The translations under genes and the position numbers were made by a program. 64,000 bases of DNA from positions 1 to 64,000 of the forward strand of contig CATQHI010000022.1 in assembly GCA_958295895.1 (NCBI GenBank). Direction: 5' to 3'. Numbering within the stretch: the stretch's first letter is position 1; the number at the start of each line of letters is the position of its first letter. The notes under the pieces are model-generated. The model was given only the letters and a program-made list of their open reading frames with translations. It was not told where the DNA came from and searched no databases. This DNA comes from Saprospiraceae bacterium. GTDB lineage: Bacteria > Bacteroidota > Bacteroidia > Chitinophagales > Saprospiraceae. This document shows, one piece after another, positions 1,463-63,857 of this stretch.

Positions 1463-2893
1463 TCACAGCCCCTCCGCCTTCCCCAACGCCTTAGTCAGTG
1501 CCCCCAGTTTATGGTACACCTCCTGCAGCTCGCTCTCCTCATCACTGGCCGCCACCACCCCGGCACCGGCCTGGTAGTAGAGCGTATTGTCCTGACTGAA
1601 GAAGGAGCGGATAAGGATGGCCTGGTTCATCCCGCCGTCGAAGTCGATAAAGCCGATGGCCCCGCCGTAAAAGCCCCGCTGCTGGTTCTCGTACTGGTTG
1701 ATGAGCTCCAGGGCACGGTACTTCGGGGCCCCACTGAGGGTCCCGGCCGGGAAGGTGTCGCCAAAGATGCGCACCGCCTCATCCTCGCGTTCGAGGCGCC
1801 CATCGACGGTGCTGACCAGGTGGATGACGTGGCTGTAGTAGTGCACCTCCCGCAGACTGCGCACGGTCACCTCACGAGTATGCCGACTCAGGTCGTTGCG
1901 GGCCAGGTCCACGAGCATGACGTGCTCGGCGTTCTCCTTGGGATCAGCCAGCAGGCGTTCGGTGGCCAGGCGGTCACGCTCAGCATCTCCGGTGCGGCGG
2001 TAGGTTCCGGCGATGGGGTTGAGGCGGGCCTTGCCATCTCGGATCACCAGCTGGGCCTCCGGGCTGCTGCCCATAATGCGGTAGTCGCCGTAGTCGAAGT
2101 AGAAGAGGTAGGGCGAAGGATTGATACTACGCAGCGCCCGGTACACCTGAAACTCATCACCCGTGAAGTCCTGCTGAAACTGCCGGCTCAGTACGATCTG
2201 GAACACATCGCCGATGCGGCAGTGGTGCTTGCCCTTGCTCACCAGCTCACGGAACTGTGCGTCGGTCAGGTTGCTCCGCTCCGCCCCCACTCTCGTAAAG
2301 GGGTGCACGGTCCCCCCAGCCCGGATGGCCTGCTCCACCTCATCGAGTCTACTTTCCTGCCCCTCCGGCAGATTCTCCAGTAGGAGCAGCTCATCCCGGT
2401 AATGGTGAAACACCAGCACAAAGCGGTACAGGTGATACCTCAGGGCGGGGGAACGCAGGTGCAGAGGCTTATCGAACGACAGCGTATCGAAGTAGGCCAC
2501 CCCCTCGAAATTGGTGTGGCCGATCAGTCCGTTGAACTGCCGCACCAGGGGCGTCACCTCGCCGTAGTCTATTTGGAAGGATCGCAGGAACTCTCCCAGG
2601 TCCTTACTGACGGTATTGGCATCCGTCACGGTCCGCTCCGTAGCCGGCTCCCCTACCCTGCCGCGGGTGATGGTCTGGCCATCCACGCGGTAGGAAGCTA
2701 GGGTGTCCAGGCCGATGATGCTGAAGTAGTGCTCATTGTGGCGTGTCTCGTTGGATTCCAGCAGTACGGGGTCGGTAAAGCGGTCGCGCAGCGCCAGGTA
2801 AAGGGAGACCGGCGTCAGTTGATCGGCGGTGATCCGGCGGGTCATCACACGCAGCGTGGTGGTGGTGTCAATAAGAGTAATAGCGGTAGACAA
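1463..2893 (-). CDS. trpE: Anthranilate synthase component I
   Basis: Converts chorismate to anthranilate using ammonia from TrpG; the first committed step of tryptophan synthesis. The 476-residue protein has the full chorismate-binding C-terminal half: FYFDYGDYRIMGSSPE, LNPIAGTYRRTGDAERD, ARNDLSRH, STVDGRL, FPAGTLSGAPK and YYQAGAGVV near the end. The longest reading begins at TTG 2893; the alignment-relevant core begins around MTRRITADQLTPVSLYL, so ATG 2845 is a real alternative start. A copy of the dispersed motif (2443-2464) encodes a variable loop (KPLHLRSPALR). Expression is probably set by the upstream leader attenuator. Confidence 0.95.
   Translation of the reverse strand: MSTAITLIDTTTTLRVMTRRITADQLTPVSLYLALRDRFTDPVLLESNETRHNEHYFSIIGLDTLASYRVDGQTITRGRVGEPATERTVTDANTVSKDLGEFLRSFQIDYGEVTPLVRQFNGLIGHTNFEGVAYFDTLSFDKPLHLRSPALRYHLYRFVLVFHHYRDELLLLENLPEGQESRLDEVEQAIRAGGTVHPFTRVGAERSNLTDAQFRELVSKGKHHCRIGDVFQIVLSRQFQQDFTGDEFQVYRALRSINPSPYLFYFDYGDYRIMGSSPEAQLVIRDGKARLNPIAGTYRRTGDAERDRLATERLLADPKENAEHVMLVDLARNDLSRHTREVTVRSLREVHYYSHVIHLVSTVDGRLEREDEAVRIFGDTFPAGTLSGAPKYRALELINQYENQQRGFYGGAIGFIDFDGGMNQAILIRSFFSQDNTLYYQAGAGVVAASDEESELQEVYHKLGALTKALGKAEGL
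2443..2464 (-). repeat. Dispersed 20-bp motif, copy inside trpE
   Basis: On the minus strand this reads TGCACCTGCGTTCCCCCGCC, close to the consensus TTGCACCTGCGGCCCCGCCC. It is in the sense direction of trpE and encodes LHLRSPA in a loop of the N-terminal domain. Confidence 0.5.
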
Positions 2894-2931
2894 GGGGAAG
2901 TAAAGTTAGTATCGGCACCCAGCAGAACGGA

Positions 2932-2964
2932 AAAAGGCCCGCCGGAGCTACCGACGGGCCTTTT
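2932..2964 (-). terminator. trp operon attenuator terminator hairpin
   Basis: Arms AAAAGGCCCGTCGG and CCGGCGGGCCTTTT (minus strand) form a 14-bp stem with one wobble around a 5-base loop, followed by a T-run. It lies 26 nt after the leader peptide stop and about 40 nt before trpE. It can therefore only act on transcripts entering trpE, which is the position of an attenuator. Confidence 0.8.
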
Positions 2965-2989
2965 AGATTGACGTGCAGGACCTAGGTGC

Positions 2990-3037
2990 TCAGGGTTGAG
3001 TACGGGTAGGCCACCAGATGAGGTTTTGGGTCTGCAT
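2990..3037 (-). CDS. trpL: trp operon leader peptide (15 aa, tandem Trp codons)
   Basis: The minus strand from ATG 3037 reads MQTQNLIWWPTRTQP and then TGA. The two adjacent TGG codons are a ribosome-stalling sensor for charged tRNA-Trp, as in classical trp attenuation. It is followed by the terminator hairpin at 2932-2964 and then trpE. The promoter -7 element ends only 4 nt before the ATG, so the transcript is probably leaderless or nearly so. The alternative antiterminator fold was not worked out. The reading of this as a leader peptide rests on codon content and context. Confidence 0.8.
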   Translation of the reverse strand: MQTQNLIWWPTRTQP

Positions 3038-3041
3038 GGCA

Positions 3042-3072: not shown

Positions 3073-3098
3073 TCTTTTTGCACCTTACCCCTTTCTCC

Positions 3099-3117
3099 GC
3101 ACCTGCGGCCCCGCCCC
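3099..3117 (+). repeat. Dispersed 20-bp motif, upstream of 3140 gene
   Basis: GCACCTGCGGCCCCGCCCC matches the consensus without its first two bases. It is intergenic, sense-oriented, and lies 23 nt upstream of the start codon at 3140. Confidence 0.6.
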
Positions 3118-3139
3118 CTCATCCCTTGTCACCTACACT

Positions 3140-5174: not shown

Positions 5175-5195
5175 GGGCCGCGGCCGCGGGTGCTA
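5175..5195 (-). repeat. Degenerate dispersed motif copy after the DUF4197 gene
   Basis: The minus strand reads TAGCACCCGCGGCCGCGGCC, a weak match to the consensus but close to the copy at 39636. Intergenic. Confidence 0.3.
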
Positions 5196-11436: not shown

Positions 11437-14281
11437 ATCGCCCGAACTGCTGCTGTCCATCGTAGCGATTCTGGTTGATAGGCACCTCCAGAAAATCAAA
11501 GGTACCGGGCTTCACCGCAATGGTAAACTGGTAAGTGTTGCGCTGCGGCGCCCAGCTGAAGCGCATCTCCCAGCAGTGCAGGTCACGGGCGAAGCTGAGG
11601 TAGGGGTACGTGATGCGCCTGCTGGTGAAGTCGTAGCCGATCTGCCCGATGTTGACACTCCAGTTTTCGGTTACTTGTAGTGCACCGCGGAGCTCGATGC
11701 TATTGGCAGTAGTATTGAAGCGTAGCGTATCGCGGGCACCCTCCTCCAGGGCCACCTCCCGGTCGAGCCGAAAGTTGAGGGTATGGCGGATGCTGAAGTT
11801 CTCAAAGAGGCTTAGGAAGTCCGTTTCTTCGAACAAGGTCGCCTGTTCCTCCCGTCGCTGTCTACGCTCCTCGGCCACGTCGGTGACGAACTCCTCCTCC
11901 TGCCCCTGGAAGAGTTCCCGAAACTTGTCCACCGTTAGACTGGTAGATATCGTTGCGTTAAAATCGCTCAGTTGTACGGGTACCCCCCGCTCGCTCAGCG
12001 TGGTACGGTTTATGCGGCTTACCCGCCGGGTCTGCTCGTTGTACGTACTAACGTACGGATCGAACTGTGCACGCAGACTAACCTGGGAAAGGCCCTTGAA
12101 GAGTCGAGTGCTGCCGTTCACGTTGATCGGACTCCACTGCAGGCTATCCGCGCTCAACTGGTAGCGCCCCGTCACCCCGATATTTTGGAACAGTTTGATG
12201 ATCTGGTCGGCGCTATCCTTGCGGCTGTACACCTTGGCCTCGAAGAGGTTACTGAGACTGTAGTTGATGCCCAGGTTACCCTCCGTACGGGTGGGCTGGC
12301 CGAAAATTTGTCCTGCGAAGGGACTAACGAACCTGGTGGGATCGCCCCGCTGCGGATCGACCTCTGACTGAGCTACGAAGTACGGCAGTCCACTGATGAA
12401 GTCTACCGCATCACGGTTATCCGGCTGGTAACTCAGTGAGACGGTAGGCTTAAGCACGTGACGGATACCCTTTAGGCCAAACAGTCCCCCCCGCCCAAAC
12501 TGCACCTTACCGAAAAGCTGGGTGCTCACGCTCACGCCGGCATTGAAATTACGGAAGGAAGCTACGCCCGGCCTGAAACGCTCATCATTAATGGACGCAA
12601 AGCTGATGGTATCGGTAATGAGGTTCCCATCCTGGTCCAGTGCGTCCTCCGTCTCGATCGTAGAGGTATCGAGGAAGTAATCGAGCGTCTTGCCGTAGTA
12701 CACCTCCGAGTAGTTCACATTCGGGCTCACGTTGAAGAACTTGAGCACGTTCAGACTTAGGGAGGCGCTGGCATCCTGCTGAAAGCCGTAGCGGGCATCG
12801 GTCAACGTCTGGGGTGTGAAGAAGGTACTGTCAATGCCCGCAAATTCTGTACGGAGTTGGCTCCCGTAGCGAACGGCTAGTTTCTTGTACCACTTACGGG
12901 CACTTCCCGGCAAACTCCGCAGGGGGTAGATCGTCTGCGTCTGAAACTGGGCATCGGGGAAGTTGACGCTGATCTGCCGCGTCTGGTTATTTTGACTGTG
13001 GTTAAGTCCGGCCGTAAGAGTAGACTTTAGCTTCGGGAAGGTCTTGGTGATGTTCATCGACGAGCGGATCACGTTCGTGCTGGCCGCCTCGTAGGTATTG
13101 ATGAAACGCTGGTCGACCAGGTCGGTCTGAAAGTTGACACTGCCCCCGAAGGTAAAGGTAGGATGCGCCCGGGGGTCCTGCCGGTGCGTCCAGCCGATGG
13201 TGATGCCGCTCGCTACCACCTCGTTGAGCCCCTGCTCGATGGAGGATTCCGTGATTAACCGGCGGTAGCTGACGTTGGCATTTCCACTGTATTTATACCG
13301 CTTCCGGTAGCTGGTGGCCGTATTCACCGTGAAGGTTCCGTTGAGATAAATATCCGTAGTGGCCGTCAGATTCACGTGTTCCCCCAGCGGAAAGAACCAG
13401 CCAATGCCCTGAAAGCCGAACCCCCACTGCGGACTGTACTGGTAGTCGCTCGGAAAGAGCAGTCCGCTTGAGCGCCCGCTCTTCAGCGGAAAAAACCCGA
13501 AGGGTAGCCATAAGGGCGTCGGCACTCCCATAATCTCCAGGTTCGACGGACCGATGATGGCCAGCTTGTTCGGTACGATCTTGGCCCGCTGTGTACGGAT
13601 GCCATAGTGGGGATGCTCCAGCGAGCAACTGGTGAAGATGGCCCCCTCGGTGTAGATCACGTCCGAGCGCGTGGAATCGTTGGTCTGGATCGCCCCACTG
13701 ACGAACTTCGACTTGCCCCCACGAATAAAGACATCGTCCTGGGTGGTCACAGTCTCCTTGACGATGCCCTTTCGCGACTTGAAGTTATACTCCAGACTCT
13801 TGGCGCTAAATTCTTGTCCACCATCGCTGAAGATCGGGTCGCCTACCAGTACGCCTGCACTATCGGGGTACGGGGCGGCACGGACCAGGTTGGTGCCGTA
13901 GTCCAGGGTAATGAAGTCGGCCTTTAGGCTAATTTGCTGGTACTTCACCTCCGCCGCTCCGTAGAGGCGAATTTGTTGGTTGGCAAGATCGATGTCCATA
14001 CTGTCCCGCGCCTGGTAATCTACGGGGGCATCGAGGCTGTCCGGGCTCATCTGAAAGTCAGCCGTCGACCCGCGGAATGGCGCTTCCTGCGACACACTAT
14101 CCACCTGCGCACCCGCCCAGAAGGGTAGGCTCAGCAGACAAAACAGGAGGGCGGCGGCGCGCAGGTGCAAGGGCGGGTGGTTGGAAAACAGAGCTACGGA
14201 ATGGATACGAAAAACGAGTGACGCGTTGGGCGTGCGACGCCGAAACCGGGGCTTTAACGCTTCCTTAATACGGGCCGGCAA
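11435..14281 (-). CDS. lptD: LptD/OstA-like LPS-assembly outer-membrane protein
   Basis: Outer-membrane beta-barrel that inserts LPS into the outer leaflet. The N-terminal OstA-like region follows the signal peptide (DLANQQIRLYGAAEVKYQQI, then LKADFITLDYGTNLV). Next is the conserved barrel entry PTPLWLPFGFFPLKSGRSSG, then many barrel strands to about residue 948. The longest reading starts at TTG 14281, but that TTG lies inside a TACCTTTG -7 element (14286-14279). The first downstream start-like codon is TTG 14170, which gives the clean signal peptide MHLRAAALLFCLLSLPFWAG. The true start is therefore probably 14170, and that codon belongs to a copy of the dispersed motif. Confidence 0.85.
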   Translation of the reverse strand: MPARIKEALKPRFRRRTPNASLVFRIHSVALFSNHPPLHLRAAALLFCLLSLPFWAGAQVDSVSQEAPFRGSTADFQMSPDSLDAPVDYQARDSMDIDLANQQIRLYGAAEVKYQQISLKADFITLDYGTNLVRAAPYPDSAGVLVGDPIFSDGGQEFSAKSLEYNFKSRKGIVKETVTTQDDVFIRGGKSKFVSGAIQTNDSTRSDVIYTEGAIFTSCSLEHPHYGIRTQRAKIVPNKLAIIGPSNLEIMGVPTPLWLPFGFFPLKSGRSSGLLFPSDYQYSPQWGFGFQGIGWFFPLGEHVNLTATTDIYLNGTFTVNTATSYRKRYKYSGNANVSYRRLITESSIEQGLNEVVASGITIGWTHRQDPRAHPTFTFGGSVNFQTDLVDQRFINTYEAASTNVIRSSMNITKTFPKLKSTLTAGLNHSQNNQTRQISVNFPDAQFQTQTIYPLRSLPGSARKWYKKLAVRYGSQLRTEFAGIDSTFFTPQTLTDARYGFQQDASASLSLNVLKFFNVSPNVNYSEVYYGKTLDYFLDTSTIETEDALDQDGNLITDTISFASINDERFRPGVASFRNFNAGVSVSTQLFGKVQFGRGGLFGLKGIRHVLKPTVSLSYQPDNRDAVDFISGLPYFVAQSEVDPQRGDPTRFVSPFAGQIFGQPTRTEGNLGINYSLSNLFEAKVYSRKDSADQIIKLFQNIGVTGRYQLSADSLQWSPINVNGSTRLFKGLSQVSLRAQFDPYVSTYNEQTRRVSRINRTTLSERGVPVQLSDFNATISTSLTVDKFRELFQGQEEEFVTDVAEERRQRREEQATLFEETDFLSLFENFSIRHTLNFRLDREVALEEGARDTLRFNTTANSIELRGALQVTENWSVNIGQIGYDFTSRRITYPYLSFARDLHCWEMRFSWAPQRNTYQFTIAVKPGTFDFLEVPINQNRYDGQQQFGR
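14149..14170 (-). repeat. Dispersed 20-bp motif at the lptD start
   Basis: The minus strand reads TTGCACCTGCGCGCCGCCGC, with the last part diverged. Sense to lptD; its first three bases are the probable lptD start codon, and it encodes LHLRAAA. A weaker half-copy, CACCTGCGCACCCGCCC, lies on the opposite strand at 14103-14119. Confidence 0.5.
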
Positions 14282-19549: not shown

Positions 19550-20464
19550 CTATTCTGTCTTCACTCCCACCACCGCAAAGGTGTGCGCACCCGTCCCTAA
19601 ATCACTCAACCTCAGCGTATAGTCGCCCGGCACCCAGGTACTTACATCCAACGAATCGATCACTCGACCTACGGGTATCCGGTCCATTACTACCCCATCG
19701 CGCAGTACGGTCAGTAATTTCTCCGGTCCGGGCAAATAGAGGCGTAAAGTTGGGCGGGACCGCAGGTGCACGGCAGGTTGTGGGGGCACCCGATCTTGAA
19801 AGTCGCTCAGATCTAGGTGGTAGCCCCCGAACGTCAGGGGCAGCACGAAGGCGGTGTCCTTACCGGTGTAGCTGCCCCGTACGGTCGTCCGCTCGGTGGC
19901 CGCGGTAAACCGGTAGGTGAAGGGCAGGGCCCTGCTTGCTTGCCCCGATAAGCTCACCGAATCGGCGATACCAAAGCCTAGCAGCGGAACGTGAAGGTAG
20001 GTGGTGACCGGCGCTCGGTCGAAGTTATTGACGGTGAGGGTATCGCGGAGCTCTTCGCCTACTCGACCGTAGTAGATCGTCCTGCCCTGGGATGCGTAAA
20101 TGTTGGTGGACAGATACCTCGCTCGTTCTTGTGCAGGCTTCCGTTCCTGCCGGCGCGCTGCATTTAGACTGTCGATCTGTGATTGATGCAGTGCTAGGAA
20201 GGTGACGTGAGGAATAATTTGTCCCGCCGTGTCCCGGACCTCTACGCTATCCACCATACGGATCAACTGGTCGGTTGCTCCTGGCACAATGCCGCGCTGA
20301 AATTGCTCGGCGCGTGACAGCTCCTCTACCGGTACCAGGCGGTAATTGCTTACCGTGACCAGACCAAGCTCAGGATAGTGCAACGTATCGGTTTGGATCG
20401 CCTGCGCGCAAAGCGCCCCACCGAAGAGAAGAATAAGCGTCGACCACCGGAGCTTCACCATCAT
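19550..20464 (-). CDS. Exported hypothetical protein
   Basis: 304 residues; family not recognised. A signal peptide (LRWSTLILLFGGALCAQA) precedes an all-beta-looking protein with a polar, Arg/Gln-rich middle (QSQIDSLNAARRQERKPAQE). The C-terminal about 100 residues (LRLYLPGPEKLLTVLRDGVV, WVPGDYTLRLSDLGTGAHTF) resemble an Ig-like or sorting-type sandwich, but no clear type 9 sorting motif is present. The dispersed motif at 19752-19770 encodes VHLRSRP just before that part. It precedes the GH127-like gene. Confidence 0.6.
   Translation of the reverse strand: MMVKLRWSTLILLFGGALCAQAIQTDTLHYPELGLVTVSNYRLVPVEELSRAEQFQRGIVPGATDQLIRMVDSVEVRDTAGQIIPHVTFLALHQSQIDSLNAARRQERKPAQERARYLSTNIYASQGRTIYYGRVGEELRDTLTVNNFDRAPVTTYLHVPLLGFGIADSVSLSGQASRALPFTYRFTAATERTTVRGSYTGKDTAFVLPLTFGGYHLDLSDFQDRVPPQPAVHLRSRPTLRLYLPGPEKLLTVLRDGVVMDRIPVGRVIDSLDVSTWVPGDYTLRLSDLGTGAHTFAVVGVKTE
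19752..19770 (-). repeat. Dispersed 20-bp motif inside the 19550 gene
   Basis: The minus strand reads TGCACCTGCGGTCCCGCCC, one mismatch to the consensus. Sense-oriented; encodes VHLRSRP at a probable domain boundary. Confidence 0.6.
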
Positions 20465-20513
20465 TACCTAATATAAGGACTTTTCCGTAGGTGTGGCTTT
20501 AGCCGCGCTAGCC

Positions 20514-20532
20514 TGCACCCGCGGCCCCGCCC
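20514..20532 (+). repeat. Dispersed 20-bp motif upstream of miaB
   Basis: TGCACCCGCGGCCCCGCCC, one mismatch to the consensus; intergenic and sense to miaB, about 80 nt upstream of its start. Confidence 0.6.
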
Positions 20533-35007: not shown

Positions 35008-35028
35008 TTGCACCCGCGACCCCGGCCC
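35008..35028 (+). repeat. Dispersed 20-bp motif upstream of the iron operon
   Basis: TTGCACCCGCGACCCCGGCC, three mismatches to the consensus. Intergenic between pyc and the DUF4856 gene, sense to the latter. Confidence 0.5.
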
Positions 35029-38703: not shown

Positions 38704-41182
38704 GAGCATAGGCGTAAGTTGGGGTACGGTAGCGTGGCTAGCGTTACTGACGGGCATACTTTCCGCCCAGTCGACCGTAACGCTAACGGTAGTGGACACG
38801 AGTGGCGCCCCACTTCCCGAAGCAGAACTCTTTGCTGCCGAAACCGCTAGGGTCACCACGACCGGTCCTACTGGAACGGCAACGCTGGGCTTTCCCACCG
38901 GGGTGGACACCCTTACCCTGACCGTCTTCGCCCCGGGCCTCAGCAGCGAGCAGTTGCGACTCGGCCGCGGGGAAGGTCCGCGCCGCATCACGCTTCGCCC
39001 CCTGAGTCTGGACCTTAGCTCCGTGCTCGTCACCGCCGAGGCCCGTCGCCGCGAGGCGCTGACCCGGTTACGTGCGGTAGAGGGCACGGCCATTTACGCT
39101 GGCCGCAAGACGGAGGTGGTCGCCCTCGACGCGCTCACCGTCAACCTAGCAACCAATCAGGCTAGACAGATCTACGGCGAGGTGTCCGGACTAAATATCT
39201 ACGAAAACGACGACGCCGGCCTGCAGCTCAATATCGGCGGCCGCGGCCTGGACCCCAACCGCACCGCCAGCTTCAACACCCGGCAGAACGGCTACGACAT
39301 CAGCGCCGATGTGCTGGGCTACCCCGAAAGTTACTACACCCCCCCGGCCGAGGCCCTGGCCCGCATCGAGGTGGTACGGGGGGCGGCTAGCCTACAGTAC
39401 GGTACGCAGTTTGGCGGCCTGGTCAACTTCGTGTTTCGTGAGCCGAATCGAGCGAAAAAGAGCGAGCTCGTAAGCCGGCAGACCGTAGGCTCCAACGCGC
39501 TATTCACCTCCTTCAATAGTCTCAGTGGACAGCTCGGACCCGTGGGCTACTACGGCTTCTATAACTACAAGCGGGGGGATGGCTTCCGACCGAACTCGGG
39601 CTTCGACTCGCATACGGCCTTTCTGCACCTGGACGTTGCACCCGCGTCCGCGGCCGGTACCAAGATTAGCCTGGAGTATACCTACCAGGACTATCTGGCA
39701 CAGCAGGCCGGCGGACTCACCGATGCGCAGTTCTACCGCGACCCTTACAGCAGCAACCGGGCCCGGAACTGGTTCGCGGTGAGCTGGCAGTTGTTCAGTC
39801 TGCGTCTGGACCACAAGGTCAGCGATCGGACTACGCTGAGTGTCAATGCCTTCGGATTAGACGCCTCCCGCCGGGCGGTGGGTTTTCGGACTAACCGGGT
39901 GAGTCAGGTGGATGATACCGAGGCCCCACGCGATCTGCTGATCGGTAAGTTTCGAAACTACGGCGTAGAGACACGCTTGCTAAAGCGCTATCAACTCGCT
40001 GGCCGTGAGGCGATTGCCCTGATCGGGATGAAGTATTACCGGGCCCAGAACTCGGCAGTACAGGGACCGGGGACGGCGGGCAGCGACGCAGATTTCAGCC
40101 TGGCGACCGACCGCTTCCCAAGTTACCCCAATCAGTCCGATTTTGTCTTTCCAAATCGCAACCTAGCCCTGTTTGGCGAGCACATATTCTACCTCAGTGA
40201 GCGGTTGAGCATCACGCCGGGGGCCCGATTCGAGTATATCCGCACGGCCTCCGAGGGCAGCTACCGCCGTTTTGATTTCGACTTGGCGGGCAACGCCATT
40301 CGCGACGAGCGTTTTACGGACGATCGGACATTCCGCCGCAATCTCTTGTTGCTCGGCGTAGGCCTGAGTTACCGCCGCAGCGAGCAACTGGAAGTTTTTG
40401 CCAACCTCAGCGAAAACTACCGCTCGGTGACCTTCAACGACATTCGTACCGTAAATCCCAGTTTTCAGGTAGACCCGAATATCCGCGACGAGCGGGGGTT
40501 CACCGCCGATGTAGGCGTGCGGGGTCGCAGGATGCGGTGGTCGTATAGTGCCAACGTGTTCGCCCTTCGTTACGGTAATCGCCTGGGCGAGGTCCTCACC
40601 CCGGAGGTACGCACCAGCGCAGACGGGGAGGAGGTGGAGACCGGACGCATCGTGCGACTGCGCGGCAATATCGGCGCCGCCTTGCTGTATGGTCTGGAGT
40701 CTTTAATCGAGTACCGGGCGCTCGATGCGGTATCCGACCGGGAGACACCCTATACCCTGACTGTATTTGCCAATACGAGTGTGACGGATTCGCGCTATAC
40801 GAGCTCGGCTACGCCGGGGGTAGCCGGCAATGCGGTGGAATTCATTTCCCGCCTGAACCTAAAGACCGGGCTGCGCTTTGGCTACGGCGACCTGCTGGGG
40901 TCGCTACAGTATAGCTATCTCTCGCGGCAGTTCACCGATGCCAGTAATGCGGTGCAGGACCGTAGCGATAATCAGAGTGGTATCGTGGGTAGTATCCCCG
41001 CCTACGGGGTGGCTGACTTGAGCCTAAGCTACCGGTACCGGCGGTGGACGGTGGAGGCGGGGGTGAATAACCTGCTGGATGCGGTGTACTTTACTAGGCG
41101 GGCTACGGGGTATCCGGGGCCGGGGATCATTCCTAGTGCGGGGCGGACGTTTTATTTGACGGTGGGAGTGAGGCTATTCTAG
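38693..41182 (+). CDS. TonB-dependent receptor, FecA-like, of the putative iron operon
   Basis: 829 residues. Signal peptide ends near LLTGILSAQ; a short carboxypeptidase-like domain follows (about 25-105), then the plug (RQIYGEVSGLNIYENDDAGL, LNIGGRGLDPNRTASF, RIEVVRGAASLQYGTQFGGL) and a 22-strand barrel ending in FYLTVGVRLF. The plug resembles FecA-type iron-chelate receptors. A motif copy at 39636-39655 encodes VAPASAAG in an extracellular loop. The ATG overlaps the HTTM stop. Likely imports a metal complex for the imelysin and HTTM proteins. Confidence 0.9.
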   Translation: MNCRSIGVSWGTVAWLALLTGILSAQSTVTLTVVDTSGAPLPEAELFAAETARVTTTGPTGTATLGFPTGVDTLTLTVFAPGLSSEQLRLGRGEGPRRITLRPLSLDLSSVLVTAEARRREALTRLRAVEGTAIYAGRKTEVVALDALTVNLATNQARQIYGEVSGLNIYENDDAGLQLNIGGRGLDPNRTASFNTRQNGYDISADVLGYPESYYTPPAEALARIEVVRGAASLQYGTQFGGLVNFVFREPNRAKKSELVSRQTVGSNALFTSFNSLSGQLGPVGYYGFYNYKRGDGFRPNSGFDSHTAFLHLDVAPASAAGTKISLEYTYQDYLAQQAGGLTDAQFYRDPYSSNRARNWFAVSWQLFSLRLDHKVSDRTTLSVNAFGLDASRRAVGFRTNRVSQVDDTEAPRDLLIGKFRNYGVETRLLKRYQLAGREAIALIGMKYYRAQNSAVQGPGTAGSDADFSLATDRFPSYPNQSDFVFPNRNLALFGEHIFYLSERLSITPGARFEYIRTASEGSYRRFDFDLAGNAIRDERFTDDRTFRRNLLLLGVGLSYRRSEQLEVFANLSENYRSVTFNDIRTVNPSFQVDPNIRDERGFTADVGVRGRRMRWSYSANVFALRYGNRLGEVLTPEVRTSADGEEVETGRIVRLRGNIGAALLYGLESLIEYRALDAVSDRETPYTLTVFANTSVTDSRYTSSATPGVAGNAVEFISRLNLKTGLRFGYGDLLGSLQYSYLSRQFTDASNAVQDRSDNQSGIVGSIPAYGVADLSLSYRYRRWTVEAGVNNLLDAVYFTRRATGYPGPGIIPSAGRTFYLTVGVRLF
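39636..39655 (+). repeat. Dispersed motif copy inside the FecA-like gene
   Basis: TTGCACCCGCGTCCGCGGCC, degenerate at the 3' part. Sense-oriented; encodes VAPASAA in a barrel loop. Confidence 0.4.
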
Positions 41183-44403: not shown

Positions 44404-47400
44404 TTAGTACTTCACGTAGGCGGCATCGGTGCTAAAGAGCATATTCGCCACCGAGGTAAGGGCCGCGGTATGAACCGGATCGAGCATCGTCGGCCGGGGG
44501 TACTCTCCCACGGTGAGGAGAGTGTCGACCGCTACCCGGTCGTCCCGAAAGCGCGTTAACTCCTCCCGGTAGAGAGAAGTGAGTACCTGAAGTTCGGCCT
44601 CCTCGGCGCGGCGCCCCGTCACCAGACGAAAGGCACGGCGCAGTTGCTCTTCCGCATCCTCACCCGCCTCAAGCTGCACGCGCTGGGCCAGTACCCGAGC
44701 GGCTTCCACAAACTGGGGGTCATTGAGCAGGTTCAGCGCCTGTAGGGGGGTGTTGGTCTCGGATCGCTTTACCAGGCAAACGTCCCGGCTACCGGCATCG
44801 AAGGTGGTCATGAAGGGCGGCGGCGAGGTGCGGCGGATGAAGGTGTACATGCTGCGGCGGTACAGCTTACTGCCGTGGTCGGCGGCATACTCGGTCAGGA
44901 CCTTGGAGAAGTTAGATTTCTCCCGCCAAAGTCCCCCCGGCTGGTAGGGAAATACGCTCGCCCCGCCGACCGTGTCATTGAGTAGCCCACTGGCGGCCAG
45001 GGCGTTGTCGCGGATCATTTCGGCCGGTAGGCGGTAGCGGGGCCCGCGGGCAAGCAGTAGGTTAGCGGGGTCGTCGGCCAGTTGTTCGTCGGTCGGCGAG
45101 GAGGTACGGCGGTAGGTTTCCGAAAGGACCATCATCCGGATCAGTTCCCGCACGTCCCAGTGCTCCCGAAAACGACTCGTCAGGTAGTCCAGCAGGCGCG
45201 GATGGGTCGGCAGTGAACCCTGGCTACCGAAGTCATGAGGGGTAGCCACGATGCCCTGCCCAAAGATTAACTGCCAGTAGCGATTGACCACTACCCGCCC
45301 GGTCAGTGGATTCTCCGGCGCTAGCATCCAGTCCACCAGGCCGGCGCGGTTCTGAGCGTACTCGGCCGACCACGGCAGTATGCGCTGTGGGGTACCCACC
45401 GGCACCACCTCACCGGGCGCATCGTAGGCGCCCCGCAGTAATAGGTGAGTTTCCCGGGGGCGCTCCATCTCCTGCATCACCATCAGCCTGGGTAGGCTGT
45501 CGGCGTAGGAAGCCCGCCGGGCCTGCACCGCACGCAGCTCGTCGGTAGCCTCCATATAGGTTTGGCTGTTACGCCGTAGGTGGGCGCGTACCATGGCCTC
45601 CTCCGGACTCGTCTTCGGATCGTAGCCCTTCCAGACCGCCAGCGGAGAAAGCTCCCGTTGGTAGTAGCATAGTTCATCCACCCGCCCCGAGAAGATGCCA
45701 TCATCGCCGGTGTACACCCGCCAGGCCCGGCCCATACGCATGCTCCGGAGCTTACAGCCTTCGTAATCGGCACAGGGCGGGGGCGAGAAGTTGCCCGTTA
45801 GCGCGTCATGATACACCGTGGTAGCGGGCACCCGCCCATCTACGTAAAGTTGTACGCCGCTAGCCAGGCCGGAGCCATCGTAGGTGAAGCCCACCTGATA
45901 CCACTGCCCCACCAGCAGGCTATCGTTCGTTTTTACCTCGATCTGATCGGCGGGTAGGGCATGGGTAAGCCGTAGGCTCAGCCGGTTAGCGTGGTCCAGG
46001 AACAGTTCCATACCCCGCCAGGCATCGTCCTTGCGGCCGGTGGTAGTGACTAGAGCCTGTACCGTGGTGGAGTCACGGGCGGTGGTCCGCATCCACAGCG
46101 TCATACTGATGGGCTGATCCAGCGGTGTCTGCGCCAAAGGTCCCAGTTCAACCAGGTCGTAAGCGTGGTCGAACACCCCTACCCTGCCCCGCTGCGGATC
46201 GTCCGCTACGGTAAAGCTTTCACTCGACCAGGCTTTACCATCCACTTCTGCTTTACTATCAAAATCAAGCGTGAAGTCTGGTTGGGCCTCCGTAAGGGTA
46301 CCGGCAAAACGAGCCAGCTCTTCCGGACTGATGGCCACCTCGGCCCGCCGTGCATCCAGCTCTCCCATCTGCCGCTGGTAATCCTGCAACAGCTGCTCGG
46401 TTTCCTCATCCGCCAGGGTGATCACCGGACCGAAGTCGCCATCATCACCCGTCATACCTAACTCCTCGATCGTATTGAAGAAGGCCGAGAAGCTATAGTA
46501 CTCCTTCTGACTCAGCGGATCGAATTTGTGGTCGTGGCAGCGCGCGCAGTCCATCGTCAGGCCCAGTAGACCGGTCGCCACGGTATTGACCCGATCGAAG
46601 ACGTAGCTCAGCCGGTATTCTTCATCGATAGCTCCCCCCTCGGCAGTCATGGGGTGCATGCGCAGGAAAGCGGTTGCGAGCCGAGATTCGCGGGTAGGGT
46701 CTTCGATCAGGTCGCCCGCCAGTTGGTAGCGGATGAAGTCGTCGTAGGGCAGGTTGCGCCGGAAGGCCGAGATCACCCAGTCGCGGTAGGGGTAACTCGT
46801 GCGGGCCCCATCGGCGTGCATACCGTGGGAGTCGGCGTAGCGGGCCACGTCCAGCCACTCCATGGTGAGGCGTTCGGCAAATGCATCGCGGTTCATCAGT
46901 TCATCTACCTTGGCGCGGTAGGCCGCATCGCTGGGATCAGCGAGCCAGGCATCGATCTCTGCAAGGGTGGGCGGCAGGCCGGTCAGGTCCTGGTATAAGC
47001 GACGAATCAGCGTCTCCGGGTCCGCCGGGGCCGCAGGTGCAATACGCTCGTCGTGCAGCCGCGCATTGACGAAGTTATCAACGGCCGTTTGTGCCTCCGG
47101 ATAGCCGTCGGGATTAGCCGGCAGGTCGGGGTCTTCGATGGGTAAAAAAGCCCAGTGATCTTTCCACTCGGCGCCGTCCTCGATCCAGCGCACCAGCAGG
47201 GCTTTTTCCCGGTCACTGAGGGTAAGATTACTTTCCGGGGTTGGCATCATCACCTCGTGTTCCTCACTGAGAATACGGCGTACGAGCTCACTACTACCCG
47301 GCTTGCCCGGTACGATCGCGGTGTGCCCCGTTTCAGTCAGGGTGGCGTAAGCGCCCTCCTCGGTGTCTAGCCGCAGACCGGCCTTGCGGGCGTTGGCATC

Positions 47401-47562: not shown

Positions 47563-47564
47563 AC

Positions 47565-49028
47565 TTAAGCGATTAGATCGTGCTTGACTTCCCCGTGCAC
47601 ATCGGTCAGGCGGTAGCGACGGCCTTGGTGCTTAAAGGTGAAAGCCTCGTGGTCGATGCCCAGCAGGTGCATCATGGTGGCCTGGAAGTCGTGGATGTGG
47701 ACCGGGTTCTCGGTGATGTTGTAGCTAAAGTCATCGGTAGCCCCGTACACCAGTCCGGCCTTAGCGCCCCCCCCGGCCATAAAGATGGTATAGCACTTGG
47801 GATGGTGATCGCGGCCGTAGTTGGTCGCCGTCAGTTGACCCTGGCTGTAGGCCGTGCGACCGAACTCACCGCCCCACACGACCAGGGTATCCTCCAGCAG
47901 TCCGCGCTGCTTCAGGTCGGTGATCAGGGCGGCGGTAGCCTGATCGGTGTCCTTCGCCTGATCGCTCACGATCTTCGGGGCATTGCCGTGGGCATCCCAG
48001 CCGCGGTGGTAGAGTTGAATAAAGCGGACGTCCTTTTCCGCCAACCGGCGGGCCAGCAGGCAGTTTGCGGCGTAGGTGCCGGGCACCCTGCTGTCCTCGC
48101 CGTACATATCGTAGATGTAGTCGGGCTCGCCGGCCGTGTCCATCAGTTCCGGCACCGAGGTCTGCATCCGGTAGGCCATCTCGTACTGGGCGATGCGGGC
48201 ATCGATCTCGGGGTCCTTGCTGCGCTCCAGCTGGATTTCCTGTAGTTGCTTGAGGTGGTCGAGCTGACTGCGGCGGGCCCCGGCCGTGATGCCGCCGGGG
48301 TTACTGAGGTAGAGTACCGGGTCGGCCCCGGAGCGGAACTGCACGCCCTGGTGCTGGGACTCCAGGAAGCCGGCCCCCCAGGCGCGGGGGTAGATGGGCT
48401 GGGCCCCGCCGTAAATGCCCTTACTGGTCAGCACCACGAAGCTCGGCAGGTTTTCGTTCTCCGAGCCTAGGCCGTAGCTCACCCAACTGCCGATGCTGGG
48501 CCGGCCGGGAAACTGGCTGCCGGTCTGGATAAACATCAGCGCCGGGTCGTGATTGATCGCGTCGGTGTGCATGGACTTGATCCAGCAGATATCGTCGACT
48601 ACCTTAGAGAGATACGGCAGCCGGTCGCTGAGCGTCATACCGCTATCCCCGTACTGCTGGAAGTTAAATACGGATCCGGCCAGCGGTAGCGTACCCTGTC
48701 CGGCACTCATGCCCGTTAGCCGCTGTCCTTGTCTTACGGAAGCAGGTAGTTCCTGCCCGTGCAGCTTACGCAGCATCGGCTTATCGTCGAACAGATCGGG
48801 CTGGGAGGGTGCACCGGACTGAAACAAATAAATCACCCGCTTGGCGCGCCGGGGACCACCGTGGAAGATGCTGGGGCCACCTCCCAAACCTTGCACCTGC
48901 GGCCCCGCCCCACTGCCTGCCTGTAACGGATTGATGAGACCGGCCAGACTGAGCGCACCCAGTCCCAGTCCGAACTTGGACAAAAAATCGCGGCGGCTGT
49001 GGAGGTTTTCGTAATCGTTACAGTGCAT
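47565..49028 (-). CDS. DUF1501 (sulfatase-like fold) Tat-exported protein
   Basis: 487 residues. N-terminal Tat-type signal: SRRDFLSKFGLGLGALSLAG. The body has the DUF1501 pattern: RAKRVIYLFQSGAPSQPDLF, DDICWIKSMHTDAINHDPAL, HRGWDAHGNAPK, VVWGGEFGRTAYSQG, GRDHHPKCY and a C-terminal HDFQATMMHLLGIDHEAFTF. These resemble alkaline-phosphatase-fold metal ligands. Paired with the PSD1-type cytochrome gene 2 nt downstream. A perfect motif copy (48891-48910) encodes GPQVQG after the signal peptide. Confidence 0.9.
   Translation of the reverse strand: MHCNDYENLHSRRDFLSKFGLGLGALSLAGLINPLQAGSGAGPQVQGLGGGPSIFHGGPRRAKRVIYLFQSGAPSQPDLFDDKPMLRKLHGQELPASVRQGQRLTGMSAGQGTLPLAGSVFNFQQYGDSGMTLSDRLPYLSKVVDDICWIKSMHTDAINHDPALMFIQTGSQFPGRPSIGSWVSYGLGSENENLPSFVVLTSKGIYGGAQPIYPRAWGAGFLESQHQGVQFRSGADPVLYLSNPGGITAGARRSQLDHLKQLQEIQLERSKDPEIDARIAQYEMAYRMQTSVPELMDTAGEPDYIYDMYGEDSRVPGTYAANCLLARRLAEKDVRFIQLYHRGWDAHGNAPKIVSDQAKDTDQATAALITDLKQRGLLEDTLVVWGGEFGRTAYSQGQLTATNYGRDHHPKCYTIFMAGGGAKAGLVYGATDDFSYNITENPVHIHDFQATMMHLLGIDHEAFTFKHQGRRYRLTDVHGEVKHDLIA
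48891..48910 (+). repeat. Dispersed 20-bp motif, perfect copy, inside the DUF1501 gene
   Basis: TTGCACCTGCGGCCCCGCCC, the consensus itself. Antisense to the gene; read as GAGPQVQG in the linker after the Tat signal. Confidence 0.7.
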
Positions 49029-49715: not shown

Positions 49716-49716
49716 A

Positions 49717-49737
49717 GGGCGGGGAACGCGGGTGCAA
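49717..49737 (-). repeat. Dispersed 20-bp motif immediately before marC
   Basis: The minus strand reads TTGCACCCGCGTTCCCCGCC. It fills most of the 25-nt gap between the 102-residue gene and marC, sense-oriented, one base before the ATG. Confidence 0.55.
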
Positions 49738-55352: not shown

Positions 55353-56807
55353 TTAATCCGGCAGTGGTCGCAACAACTGGCGTAGGCCTTCACTCTCTTC
55401 CGCGGTCAGCAGGCGGTAGCCCCCCGTAGTATCTACCTGAAAGTAGTCGGTTGGTAGCTCCGCAATGCGGACCCGCTGGAAATCGGAGCGGAAGTCCGTT
55501 ACCCCCGTTGCAACCTCCCCCTGTCCATCCACCACCTTTAAACTTATCGCGTTGCGATCGAGGAGCGCACTAGCCCACAGCGTTTCTAGTGGTAGGCCCC
55601 AGGTGATACCAAAGTAGGGTTGCCAGTCGGTGGACGGGTAGCTAATTGCCTTAGGGGTTTTCGAGTCGCGTAGGACCTCTGTCATGATCTCCAAATTTTG
55701 CGTACGAGCGTGATAGTAGCCGTAGCTAGCCCATAGCACCTGCGTCCGCGCCCCAAAACACATCAGCAGGATCGCTAGAGTCACGTACCGGGGAAGGCGG
55801 GGCAGCGTATACAGCACGAACGGCACCGCCAGAAGGAGTCCCAGCCCCATCCACTCGCTCTCGAAGTAGTACAACTGCTTACGCCCGAAGCTACCCGGAT
55901 AGGTCACACAGACCAGTACCGTATAGGCTACTCCCGCCAGTAAGGTGAGCACCGGCACCACGTAGGCCCGGGAACGGATCGCCGCATAGCAGCCCACCGC
56001 TACCACAGCTGCCAGCGGCCAGTACAGCTCCGCGTAGCTAAGCATTGTACGCAACTGCCCGGATCGAAAGCTGGCCGTAACTGCCGCCCAGTCCAGTCCA
56101 CGCACCCCCTTTAGTTTATACCCATCGTACCAGCTTGCGTGACTGAGGTAGTACCGTAGTCCGATGCCCAAACCGATCGCTAGGGTGTAAACAATGTCGC
56201 GCGGCAATAGGCCTTTCCATCCGCCGCTCCGTGCCCACAAAAAGGTTACCCACACGAAAGCCAGGGGCGCCGCCACCAGGGGGTGCGTACTGGTAGTGAT
56301 CAGCAGCAGGATCAGTAATACGATATGCTGCCACACACTCAGGGGGCGGGGCCGCAGGTGCAGATAATATCCCACGAAGAGCAACCCCCACCCTACCGCC
56401 TGGTGGATTTCGTTGTTGGGCCAGAAGTAGACGTCCGATACGATCAGGGTCAGGTACAGGGGCAGCAGCAGCGCCAACGCATACTCCCGCCAGCGCAGAC
56501 CGACCAGCAAGTAGACAGTTGTATAAAATAGATAAAAGCTGACGGAGTAAAGCCAGCATACTACAGCTAACGGAAGTCCCAATCGAAATCCTACGAGGGG
56601 AAACACCTGCGTCACCACCGCCCCGTAGCGGTGCTCGGAGATAATGGGCTGCCCCTCCAACAGCATGCGGAAGAGGATGAAGCTGGGATCGGTAAAAAGG
56701 ATGCGCTCCCGCCAGCAGACCGCCGCGCCGACCAGTAGGGCCAGCATGGCCACTCCGCCCAAGTAATAGGTCAGACGGCCCCGTCGGTCTGGCGTACCCG
56801 CGGGCAT
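55353..56807 (-). CDS. Polytopic membrane protein, glycosyltransferase-like topology
   Basis: 484 residues with about ten membrane helices. Family not recognised. Periplasmic loop features such as FTDPSFILFRMLLEGQPIIS and SEHRYGAVVTQ near the N-terminus and YFWPNNEIHQAVGW resemble GT-C-type or O-antigen-polymerase-like enzymes, without proof. The C-terminal about 90 residues are soluble. A motif copy at 56344-56362 encodes LHLRPRP in a loop. It is adjacent to the lipoprotein gene with no gap. Confidence 0.7.
   Translation of the reverse strand: MPAGTPDRRGRLTYYLGGVAMLALLVGAAVCWRERILFTDPSFILFRMLLEGQPIISEHRYGAVVTQVFPLVGFRLGLPLAVVCWLYSVSFYLFYTTVYLLVGLRWREYALALLLPLYLTLIVSDVYFWPNNEIHQAVGWGLLFVGYYLHLRPRPLSVWQHIVLLILLLITTSTHPLVAAPLAFVWVTFLWARSGGWKGLLPRDIVYTLAIGLGIGLRYYLSHASWYDGYKLKGVRGLDWAAVTASFRSGQLRTMLSYAELYWPLAAVVAVGCYAAIRSRAYVVPVLTLLAGVAYTVLVCVTYPGSFGRKQLYYFESEWMGLGLLLAVPFVLYTLPRLPRYVTLAILLMCFGARTQVLWASYGYYHARTQNLEIMTEVLRDSKTPKAISYPSTDWQPYFGITWGLPLETLWASALLDRNAISLKVVDGQGEVATGVTDFRSDFQRVRIAELPTDYFQVDTTGGYRLLTAEESEGLRQLLRPLPD
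56344..56362 (-). repeat. Dispersed 20-bp motif inside the 55353 gene
   Basis: The minus strand reads TGCACCTGCGGCCCCGCCC, 19 of 20 consensus bases. Sense-oriented; encodes LHLRPRP between two membrane helices. Confidence 0.7.
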
Positions 56808-61763: not shown

Positions 61764-62336
61764 CTATTTTTTATCCGCATCCTGCGTACGTCCGGCGGCC
61801 CACTCCCGGCGTAGGATGCGGTAAGACACCACGGTCTGCGGGGCCCCGTCCTTGATCACGTAGTCATCGAGGGTACCCTCCCGAGTCAGTCCATTAGCCA
61901 GCAGGGCTCTGCCGGAGGCATCGTTACCGAATTTATGGATGGCCTGGATGCGCGCCAGGTCGGGAAGATACTCAAAGCCCGCAGTGAGCAGTGCCCCCAC
62001 CGCCTCGGAGACGTAACCCCGCCGGCGGTAAGGCTCCCCGAGCCAGTACCCGAGCTCGGCGTGTCCGTATTTCTCGATCAGGTGCAGTCCGACGGCTCCC
62101 ATGAACGCCCGGTCGGTCGGCGAGCGAATGGCATAGATAAAGGCCGTAGCCGTTGAACGTCCCATGTGGACCAATTGCAAAAACTGCACCGCATTGACCT
62201 CCCCGTAGGGCGAGGGCACCGAAAGAGTCATCTCCGCAATCAACGGATCGTTGGCCAGTGTGATAATCGCAGCCGCATCGGCCAGTACCGGAGGACTCAG
62301 CAGCAGGCGCGCAGTAGTAAGTTGTTCGGGTAGCAT
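61764..62336 (-). CDS. GNAT-family N-acetyltransferase (RimJ/RimL-like)
   Basis: 190 residues, one GNAT domain. The family opening is TTARLLLSPPVLADAAAIIT. Then come FMGAVGLHL, HAELGYWLGEPYRRRGYVSE, with the acetyl-CoA-binding RRRGYVSEA loop, and IQAIHKFGNDASGRALLANG. Resembles acetyltransferases of ribosomal proteins or small amines; substrate unknown. ATG 62336 has the DUF3291 remnant 13 nt upstream. Confidence 0.88.
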   Translation of the reverse strand: MLPEQLTTARLLLSPPVLADAAAIITLANDPLIAEMTLSVPSPYGEVNAVQFLQLVHMGRSTATAFIYAIRSPTDRAFMGAVGLHLIEKYGHAELGYWLGEPYRRRGYVSEAVGALLTAGFEYLPDLARIQAIHKFGNDASGRALLANGLTREGTLDDYVIKDGAPQTVVSYRILRREWAAGRTQDADKK

Positions 62337-62348
62337 AACCGGACTAAC

Positions 62349-62594
62349 CTACTCATCCCACCCAATAGTTGCCCGCAAATCTGCCGGGGCCGCAGGTGCA
62401 AAGGTTGTAGCCAGAGAAAAAGCATGCTGCGTAGGCCCCTCAGCGTCGACCAGCTCTAGTCGTTCCTTTGCCTCCGCCAGCTGATTGATCGGCGCGATGA
62501 AGTTGTTGAACTCCTTGGTGTCCGGAGCGTCGAGCGGCGCGCGGAGGCGGGCAATGTTGATCTGGGCGAGCTGTATGGCTCCCCGAGGTAGCCC
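62349..62594 (-). pseudogene. Truncated DUF3291 remnant
   Basis: The minus strand right after the 62595 stop, in the same frame, encodes QLAQINIARLRAPLDAPDTK and FNNFIAPINQLAEAKE. These match the N-terminal part of DUF3291 (usual length about 150 residues). The WRLQ-type core is missing; an unrelated-looking stretch follows up to a stop at 62349, including FAPAAPADL encoded by a motif copy. No ATG, GTG or TTG starts the segment (the expected position reads ATA), so it is probably dead. Confidence 0.6.
62384..62401 (-). repeat. Dispersed 20-bp motif inside the DUF3291 remnant
   Basis: The minus strand reads TTGCACCTGCGGCCCCGG. The preceding ACCTTTG resembles a -7 element that could serve the GNAT gene 65 nt downstream. 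Confidence 0.65.
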
Positions 62595-63857
62595 CTAGAA
62601 TTTGTAGCGGCCACCCAGGCCCAGTCCGGGGACGATTTCGGTGCCTACGCTCAGGCGGTCGTTGAGGTGATAGTGGAGGGAGAGTTGGGGCAGGATGTCG
62701 AAATTGCTGATACCTACGCCCCGCCTTGAGGAGAAGATATCTTGCCGGTAATGCCTGTTGTCGGCTGTACTAAAGATGTAGTCATAGATAACCTCATTGG
62801 CCCGGTAGCGTGGCCCTAGCGTTAACCCGGGAGTAATCTGCAGCCGTCGACGTAGGCGGAAAGTATACCCAAGGCTCAGTAGCACCTGAAACTCGGTTTT
62901 GGTGGTTTTTTGGTAGAGGAAGTACTCCGCTCCGGCACCTTCGGCATCTAGTACACCTCTGGAGGGTCGACCGTCTGATGCTCTGGCTACAATCAGTCCC
63001 AACCCGATGCGTAAGCCACTGGAGAACTGACGGGCTAATTGAACATGTGTAGCTAGTAACCGTGGTCGAATTGGATTACTAACCTGGGTGCCGTCGATAC
63101 CGTACAGATCGACCTCTTCACCCGCTACGGTATAGGTTCCTCGGTCAAAGCCCTGCGTACTGTCTGCTCTGAGCAGTTCGACATTCCTAGTTCCACTGAT
63201 GAGTTGTGGGCGTAAATGCACCCCAAACTCCCACCGACCGGCGGGGCGCTGCGGGGGCGTCACTACAGTGAAATACCTCCACCCACCATCTGCCGGCACC
63301 GTATTTATGCTTCTTTGCGGTTCTACAGCTTTTACCGGAAGGACATTCAGGTGATTAAATTCGTACTGCCATTCCACGGGATTTATCGACCCCTCCCACA
63401 AAGTGGCGGTAGTTAGAATACTTCTAGGTGCCGCCAGATCTGCAATCATTGGAGCTGACAGCGGTCGGGGAGCGATCCAGGTTAACGGTAACGGCCTGGA
63501 GCGGGCTACCCACGCCGGCGGCTGATCATTAGCTACAGATGCATACCTGTCTACATACACCGTATCCACCCGCCAACGCACCACCGTATCCACTACAGCA
63601 CGCTCCACCTCGGCAGGCGTAACGGCAGGCACCACATCCGGGCGGCGGAGCGCAGGTGCAACCACCACAAACCACCCCCCCATACCCGCGAGGAGCATCC
63701 CTACTACCACTCCGGCTGCGAACCTCCACCACGGGGACGGCGGAGCGGATGGGGCCACGACCCCCTGCCGAATTCGCTCCCACTGACCCGGCGGCGGCGT
63801 GGCGGGGGGCGGAGTTTCAGACAGGCTACGGCGGAACAGGTCTTCGAGCTTAGCCAT
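62595..63857 (-). CDS. Anti-sigma-like N-terminus fused to an outer-membrane-type beta-barrel
   Basis: 420 residues. A cytoplasmic segment of about 43 residues ([20 protein letters not shown], then WERIRQGV) precedes one membrane helix (about 45-68). A Pro-rich periplasmic region follows, then about 200 residues of amphipathic strands ([49 protein letters not shown]) ending in LGLGGRYKF with the terminal Phe of outer-membrane barrels. Its ATG overlaps the stop of the ECF sigma gene by 8 nt, so it is the likely membrane partner of that sigma. A motif copy encodes VAPALRRPD just after the helix. Confidence 0.75.
63640..63661 (-). repeat. Dispersed 20-bp motif inside the 62595 gene
   Basis: The minus strand reads TTGCACCTGCGCTCCGCCGC. 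Sense-oriented; encodes VAPALRRP directly after the membrane helix. Confidence 0.5.

What the first reader, a model, noticed from the sequence alone, without database searches (positions are those of the whole stretch)
2443..63661. A dispersed, directional 20-bp motif scattered through genes and spacers
About 15 copies of a motif with consensus TTGCACCTGCGGCCCCGCCC occur in 64 kb. Clear copies: 3099, 19752, 20514, 47022, 48891 (perfect), 56344, 62384. Diverged copies: 2443, 14149, 25102, 35008, 39636, 49717, 63640; weak ones at 5175 and 37766. Inside genes it is read as LHLR(S/P)RP, APA(A/L) or PQVQ/TQVQ, so all frames and both strands are used and the conservation is of DNA rather than peptide. 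Copies sit at tolerant places: signal peptides, domain linkers, loops, spacers. About 12 of 16 have TTGCACC in the sense direction of the host or next gene. It is not palindromic and has no ORF. It could be a mobile mini-repeat, an uptake or segregation signal, or an RNA element. I know of no described family that fits.
Basis: seen in the sequence. Interest (0 to 1): 0.8.

Follow-up and report, generated by a model that had tools for sequence, protein, structure and literature searches.

The report
Species-specific DNA uptake-like signal words
A 20-letter DNA word repeated hundreds of times in this bacterial genome looks like a species-specific 'self' tag of the kind some bacteria use to take up their own DNA, with related species carrying their own dialects of it, although no uptake experiment has been done.

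Summary
The window holds 10 copies with <=3 mismatches (0.03 expected); the genome holds 792 (370/422 by strand) against 4 for the reversed word. Of 199 family genomes sampled, only the 4 of this genus are rich in it. Within the genus (21 genomes) species use different forms: 510 copies of TTGCTACTTTGNNAG in G206 and 1 in the other 20; 364 of CCTGCGCTCCGCCGC in G208, 48 in its sister. Comparable copies mostly arise by change in place, not insertion. They favour spacers, are more evenly spaced than chance, and close neighbours form head-to-head inverted pairs. A conjugative element in G208 lacks the G208 word, though it holds one copy of the G000 form. These properties match DNA uptake sequences (DUS/USS) of Neisseriaceae and Pasteurellaceae. 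No convincing pilus motor was found in the genus, so the importer would have to differ. Best reading: a dialect-forming uptake signal (0.62). Function is inferred. Against: some phage contigs carry the word too.

The parts
48891..48910 (+). perfect copy of the word, antisense in the gene 47565-49028
   Evidence: (0 mismatches)
56344..56363 (-). copy, 1 mismatch, sense in the gene 55353-56807
3097..3116 (+). copy, 2 mismatches, in a divergent spacer; the aligned G204 spacer lacks 10 bases here
19752..19771 (-). copy, 2 mismatches, sense in the gene 19550-20461
20513..20532 (+). copy, 2 mismatches, in a divergent spacer
47023..47042 (-). copy, 2 mismatches, sense in the gene 44404-47562; replaces homologous residues without a gap
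62382..62401 (-). copy, 2 mismatches, in a tandem spacer, pointing with the genes
25102..25121 (-). copy, 3 mismatches, antisense in the gene 24459-25976
35008..35027 (+). copy, 3 mismatches, in a divergent spacer
14149..14170 (-). copy with a 6-base spacer at the start of an LptD-like gene; 22 of 22 bases identical in G204
14099..14118 (+). copy, 4 mismatches, opposite in direction to the one at 14149-14170
39636..39655 (+). copy, 4 mismatches, sense in the gene 38693-41182; relatives carry their own versions at the same place
49717..49737 (-). copy with a 5-base spacer, between two tandem genes
2443..2464 (-). copy with a 6-base spacer, sense in an anthranilate synthase component I gene
63640..63661 (-). 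copy with a 6-base spacer; gene context not assigned
5176..5195 (-). weak copy, 4 mismatches, in a spacer
36809..36828 (+). weak match, 4 mismatches; may be chance
37766..37787 (-). decayed copy with a 6-base spacer (7 mismatches to the 20-mer), opposite an intact copy in G204

Best explanation
The word is a species-specific DNA uptake (self-recognition) signal. It is polar and two-part: TTGCACC(T/C)GCG, a spacer of 4 (sometimes 5 or 6) bases, then CGCCC, with a pyrimidine-rich lead in several species. Proposed working: a surface or periplasmic receptor binds the word on double-stranded DNA; DNA carrying it is imported through the ComEC/DprA/RecA route and recombined. Because favoured fragments carry better copies, biased uptake drives copies up in number by point changes in permissive places, spreads them evenly, and re-tunes hundreds of sites together when the receptor's preference shifts, which gives the dialects. 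Head-to-head close pairs suggest that processing runs one way from each site. Shown: abundance, dialects and their partial fit to kinship, origin mainly without insertion, spacing, pairing, absence of the own word from one conjugative element. Inferred: receptor, uptake, drive, directionality.
For: 792 copies, near-balanced strands, 4 in the reversed control; excess over a synonymous-codon null; genus restriction in the sample; dialects of hundreds of copies, near-private to a species or sister pair with the sister pairs joined in a tree; orthologous places carrying each species' own version; length-neutral origin in 69 of 96 comparisons and no gap in 14 protein alignments; permissive placement and even spacing; inverted pairs; no G208 word in 100 kb of a conjugative element against 8 exact copies in 60 kb of chromosome; ComEC in 21 of 21 and DprA in 20 of 21 genomes. 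Published analogues share dialects that follow phylogeny, permissive and inverted-pair placement (PMC3630211), and elements with atypical DUS content (PMC7371117 abstract). Riemerella columbina, also Bacteroidota, prefers its own DNA (PMC7965970 section 16).
Against: No uptake test and no receptor. ComEC and DprA also occur in control genomes that are not known as competent, so they are not diagnostic. No convincing type IV pilus motor in the genus; known DUS/USS systems use pili. Some phage contigs carry 3-4 copies in 9-15 kb. The conjugative element holds one good copy of the G000 form and one near copy of the G215-like form, and its GC is lower. Eight of the window's listed sites lie in the parts that do not align to G204 at the DNA level, so copies are not concentrated in conserved genes. 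G000 has an orientation bias in tandem spacers (12 to 1; 13 to 3). Density (about 1 per 4-5 kb) is lower than that of DUS as printed in PMC3630211 section 6.
Confidence: 0.62

Rival explanations
1. Binding site of an internal DNA-binding protein that organises or segregates the chromosome (a polar nucleoid, condensin-loading or loop-anchor site), with sites spaced and paired in opposite directions for that purpose.
For: Even spacing, alternating orientation and head-to-head pairs independent of gene direction; presence in some phage contigs.
Against: Hundreds of sites would have to change together in each species with no known drive; no polarity along a contig.
Confidence: 0.17
2. Recombination or repair hotspot word (Chi-like).
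For: Species-specific words are usual for Chi (recalled).
Against: Chi words are short and oriented with replication (recalled); here strands are near-balanced and most of the 20 positions are fixed (the copies were chosen by similarity to the word).
Confidence: 0.07
3. Mobile mini-repeat that inserts (REP/MITE-like).
For: High copy number; intergenic preference; 6 of 96 comparisons gain >=10 bases, 4 of them at one G210 site; the aligned G204 spacer lacks 10 bases at 3097.
Against: 6 of 96 lose >=10 bases; 16 of 33 word-lacking relatives are length-neutral; no gap at the word in 14 protein alignments. Pairs with very large insertions could not be scored, because both flanks had to lie in one alignment.
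Confidence: 0.06
4. Transcription signal (promoter part, regulator site or terminator).
For: G000 copies in tandem spacers lean with the genes and lie near starts; TAnnTTTG boxes show a diffuse excess 60-129 bases downstream of the word (16 seen, about 4.5 expected).
Against: No box at a fixed distance; both directions inside genes; pairs ignore gene direction; other genomes lack the lean.
Confidence: 0.08

Closest known systems
DNA uptake sequence (DUS) of Neisseriaceae, with its dialects
   Same: Asymmetric word in hundreds to thousands of copies; species dialects that follow phylogeny; permissive sites; inverted pairs (PMC3630211 abstract, section 6 and passages); atypical DUS content of conjugative elements (PMC7371117 abstract).
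   Different: Here about 20-22 bases in two parts with a variable spacer, lower density, another phylum, pairs up to hundreds of bases apart, no convincing pilus motor, and no uptake data.
Uptake signal sequence (USS) of Pasteurellaceae
   Same: Dispersed asymmetric word on both strands, in genes and spacers (PMC2346458, first of three parts).
   Different: Unrelated and longer word; dialect turnover within one genus; no uptake data.
Self-DNA preference of Riemerella columbina (Bacteroidota)
   Same: Same phylum; own DNA competes better than foreign DNA (PMC7965970 section 16).
   Different: The candidates printed there are A-rich 7-10-mers, untested; nothing like this word. The Riemerella marker DUF5689 is in 1 of 21 genomes here.
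REP/MITE-type mini-repeats
   Same: Short, dispersed, many copies.
   Different: Those are palindromic or insertion-born (recalled); this word is not palindromic and copies are mostly length-neutral.

Membership tests
DUS/USS-type uptake signal | hundreds to thousands of copies far above chance, both strands | tested here: met
   792, 370/422, reversed control 4
DUS/USS-type uptake signal | species dialects consistent with kinship | tested here: met
with the tree (one protein, 20 genomes; the G208/G215 fork has 93/93 support).
DUS/USS-type uptake signal | copies arise by change in place | tested here: met
   69 of 96 comparisons length-neutral; 16 of 33 where the word is lacking
DUS/USS-type uptake signal | scarce in foreign conjugative elements | tested here: inconclusive
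   one element: 0 copies of the G208 word in 100 kb, but 1 of the G000 form; some phage contigs carry the word
DUS/USS-type uptake signal | recognition by a type IV pilus system | tested here: not met
   T2SSE: weak partial hits only; the one checked is ClpB-like. Pilins and secretins were not searched
DUS/USS-type uptake signal | the word raises uptake or transformation | not testable with these tools
   needs an experiment
Mobile mini-repeat | clean presence/absence insertions | tested here: not met
   gains and losses of >=10 bases equal, 6 and 6 of 96
KOPS-type segregation signal | orientation biased along the replichore | tested here: not met
   orientation alternates more than chance (z 3.2, 2.8; one G210 contig z 1.3); draft contigs, origin not placed

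The most novel reading that the evidence does not exclude
An uptake-signal system evolved independently in Bacteroidota: a long, two-part, polar word with fast-diverging species dialects, read by a DNA importer that does not use type IV pili, with the direction of import set by the word and head-to-head pairs serving both flanks.
Probability: 0.5. Interest if true: 0.92.

Novelty: new variant of a known kind. Interest (0 to 1): 0.82.

Why it matters
Confirmed uptake words are known to me only from Neisseriaceae and Pasteurellaceae, both pilus users. A third, unrelated case without a pilus motor would show that self-tagging of DNA evolves repeatedly. Its dialects would make the receptor findable, as a protein that changes with the word, and would make the unknown outer-membrane step of Bacteroidota transformation testable. 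It would also give a practical rule for genetics in these bacteria: put the right word on the DNA.

Tried and rejected
Mobile repeat, replichore polarity, promoter/terminator and RNA element were tested and disfavoured. Rfam: no match in the window at gathering scores. The Riemerella marker DUF5689: 1 of 21 genomes. Pilus motor: weak partial hits in 20 of 21 genomes, 11 at the cut-off; only the best G000 hit was identified (ClpB-like), the second group of hits was not. De novo search in five genomes of other genera (40-100 kb each): only G152 showed a strong repeat, and it is a longer one whose exact copies lie almost only in spacers; so no sign of the same system outside the genus in that small sample. 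The genome-contig scan named no member of the genus; Lewinella/Neolewinella-like is my guess from recall (Neolewinella was only looked up in the taxonomy). Literature listings for an uptake word in Bacteroidota or Lewinella. From titles, listed abstracts and the papers opened, only PMC7965970 lists putative, untested A-rich candidates; I did not read the other listed papers.

Weak points: genes were called by a home-made hexamer method. Dialect words were chosen after looking at the same stretches, though the counts are whole-genome with reversed controls. Logos rest on 3-11 sites for G006, G201, G202, G203, G207, G208, G209 and G210, and none was made for G211-G214. The tree is of one protein and lacks G214. 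The 96 comparisons repeat sites seen from several genomes, and sites without an alignment spanning both flanks were dropped, 4 of 13 window sites had no alignable relative. Pairing uses stretches of 11 genomes and of 8 for the spacer breakdown. One search used 12 of the 80 loci. The synonymous null used 20 shuffles per genome.
Full report
OBSERVATION. In the whole genome (4.77 Mb, 35 contigs) there are 370 forward and 422 reverse copies; the reversed word gives 1 and 3. Synonymous-codon shuffling inside genes, which keeps proteins and codon usage, gives 2-7 coding copies against 33 observed (G000, 407 kb of coding sequence) and 0-4 against 23 (G193, 248 kb; 20 shuffles each). Codon usage and peptides therefore do not explain it.

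ANATOMY. In 45 copies nothing outside the 20 bases is strongly conserved. Over 464 kb of G000 and 300 kb of G193 the word reads as TTGCACC(T/C)GCG, a spacer, and CGCCC; the spacer is 4 bases in 68 of 87 and 75 of 78 sites, otherwise 3, 5 or 6. Several species add a pyrimidine-rich lead, and G193 an A-rich tail. The word is not palindromic.

WHERE IT SITS. Spacers hold 33 of 86 placed sites in G000 (12.5% of the DNA) and 48 of 78 in G193 (17.4%). In coding DNA both directions occur: 29 sense and 24 antisense in G000, 20 and 10 in G193. In tandem spacers G000 leans with the genes (12 to 1) but G193 does not (10 to 12). With looser criteria the counts are 13 to 3, 13 to 15, and 34 to 24 for six other genomes together. 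Around 330 sites no TAnnTTTG box stands at a fixed distance, but there is a diffuse excess 60-129 bases downstream (16 seen, about 4.5 expected).

SPACING AND ORIENTATION. Sites are more evenly spaced than random (CV 0.71, P 0.0002 in G193; 0.74, P 0.015 in G000) and orientations alternate more than random (z 3.2 and 2.8; one G210 contig, z 1.3, not significant). In stretches of 11 genomes, 46 of 52 neighbours <=350 bases apart are opposite: 36 with heads inward, 10 with heads outward. At 350-2000 bases 59 of 73 are opposite, beyond that 149 of 251. For close pairs within one spacer, in 8 genomes, 26 have heads inward, 3 heads outward and 5 the same direction; heads-inward pairs occur in tandem (16), divergent (8) and convergent (2) spacers. 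Within genes the few pairs go the other way (5 heads outward, 3 inward).

DISTRIBUTION AND DIALECTS. Of 199 genomes sampled from the family, four (all of this genus) hold 408-1278 copies; the other 195 hold 0-3. All 21 genomes of the genus have matches, 4 to 1278. G206 and G208 are near background for this form (6 and 4). De novo search of stretches suggested their own words. TTGCTACTTTGNNAG: 238+272 in G206, 1 in the other 20 genomes, reversed control 0 in G206. CCTGCGCTCCGCCGC: 182+182 in G208, 48 in its sister G215, 0-22 elsewhere. YCYGCGCYCCGGCGCC: 118+121 in G215, 45 in G116, 36 in G214, 0-29 in the others, so this form is not private to one clade. GCTCCCGCGNNCCCGCC: 110+130 in G210, 74 in its sister G006, 0-4 elsewhere. 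G205 uses GCACCYGCGGCAGCGCC in the stretch read (not counted genome-wide). The tree of one 1166-residue protein (20 genomes) joins G210 with G006 (99/98) and G208 with G215 (93/93) and puts G206 on the deepest branch under midpoint rooting. Orthologous places can hold each species' own version: at 39636 the G210 copy reads GCTCCCGCG where G000 reads GCACCCGCG and G207 GCACCTGCG, without length change.

ORIGIN OF COPIES. In seven syntenic genomes, 96 site pairs could be compared: 69 have no net length change, 6 gain and 6 lose >=10 bases. Random places (2276): 89% no change, 0.5% each way. Word sites thus lie in indel-prone places, but gains equal losses; 4 of the 6 gains are one G210 site seen against four relatives. 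Of 33 pairs where the relative lacks the word, 16 are length-neutral, 5 gain and 5 lose >=10. In the gene 44404-47562 the word codes for IAPAAPAD where homologues read variants of L.P.PEAD, ungapped at the word in 14 alignments from 12 loci. At 3097 the G204 spacer lacks 10 bases. The pairs are not independent, and sites without an alignment spanning both flanks were dropped.

MOBILE DNA. Contig C4 of G208 (100 of 111 kb read) encodes TraG, a relaxase, a coupling protein and an MmeI-type enzyme. It has 0 copies of the G208 word against 8 exact in 60 kb of chromosome; the genome average predicts 6.5 in 100 kb, P 0.0015. It does hold one good copy of the G000 form and one near copy of the G215-like form, and its GC is lower (0.51 against 0.60). 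In virus contigs, 32 stretches hold the G000/G193 form; by the two-part scan 25 of them show one or two copies and 7 show three or four. The two examined, L289 and L277, have phage genes (tape measure and tail; terminase, portal-like, integrase). Phages can thus carry the word at host-like density, which a simple 'absent from foreign DNA' rule does not predict.

MACHINERY. ComEC is in 21 of 21 genomes, DprA in 20 of 21, the exception being G214 (55% complete); both families also ring in most control genomes. Type IV pilus/type II secretion motors: only weak partial hits in 20 of 21 genomes, 11 of them just over the cut-off; the best G000 hit is a ClpB-type ATPase; the others were not identified. 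Pilins and secretins were not searched. DUF5689 of the Riemerella system is in 1 of 21.

INTERPRETATION. Abundance, asymmetry, genus restriction, dialects that largely follow kinship, origin mostly by change in place, permissive placement and inverted pairs are the marks of DUS (PMC3630211: abstract, section 6 and found passages) and partly of USS (PMC2346458, first of three parts). Conjugative elements with atypical DUS content are known (PMC7371117, abstract). Bacteroidota can prefer their own DNA (PMC7965970, section 16 and passages) and use a machinery with unknown parts (PMC8459023, abstract and two sections). I therefore propose an uptake signal read by a non-pilus importer. The main rival, an internal chromosome-organising site, also explains even spacing and pairing; it explains the concerted dialect shifts less well, but nothing here excludes it.

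LIMITS. No experiment is available. Gene calls are approximate. That no uptake word of this kind is in print for Bacteroidota rests on listings in one open-access library; PMC7965970 prints putative A-rich words for Riemerella and Flavobacterium, untested.

Noticed in passing
L310-L314 (G152:C2:1000001-1100000): Another genus of the family has a much longer dispersed repeat around GCTCGGCCCT (45 copies with <=1 mismatch in 100 kb, reversed control 2); its exact copies lie almost only in spacers.
   Followed up: partly
L289, L277 and similar virus contigs (L274, L284, L285, L288, L303): Virus contigs carry three or four copies of the G000/G193 form in 9-15 kb; L289 and L277 have phage tail, terminase and integrase genes.
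   Followed up: partly
L145-L149 (G208:C4): Conjugative element with TraG, relaxase, coupling protein and MmeI-type enzyme, without the host's own word but with one copy of another species' form near position 15761.
   Followed up: partly
window 44404-49028: Gene pair (DUF1553-type; partner DUF1501-type by recall) absent at this place in the syntenic relatives, yet carrying two good copies of the word.
   Followed up: partly
L155-L159 (G215:C1:1000001-1100000), near 41900 and 64100 of the joined stretch: Two head-to-head pairs whose heads lie about 12 bases apart, so close that they form long inverted repeats.
   Followed up: no
L140-L144 (G206), joined positions 20190, 65070, 82513, 86793: A subset of G206 copies read TTGCTACTTTA with another tail containing GATCGTC: a second form of the word in one genome.
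   Followed up: no
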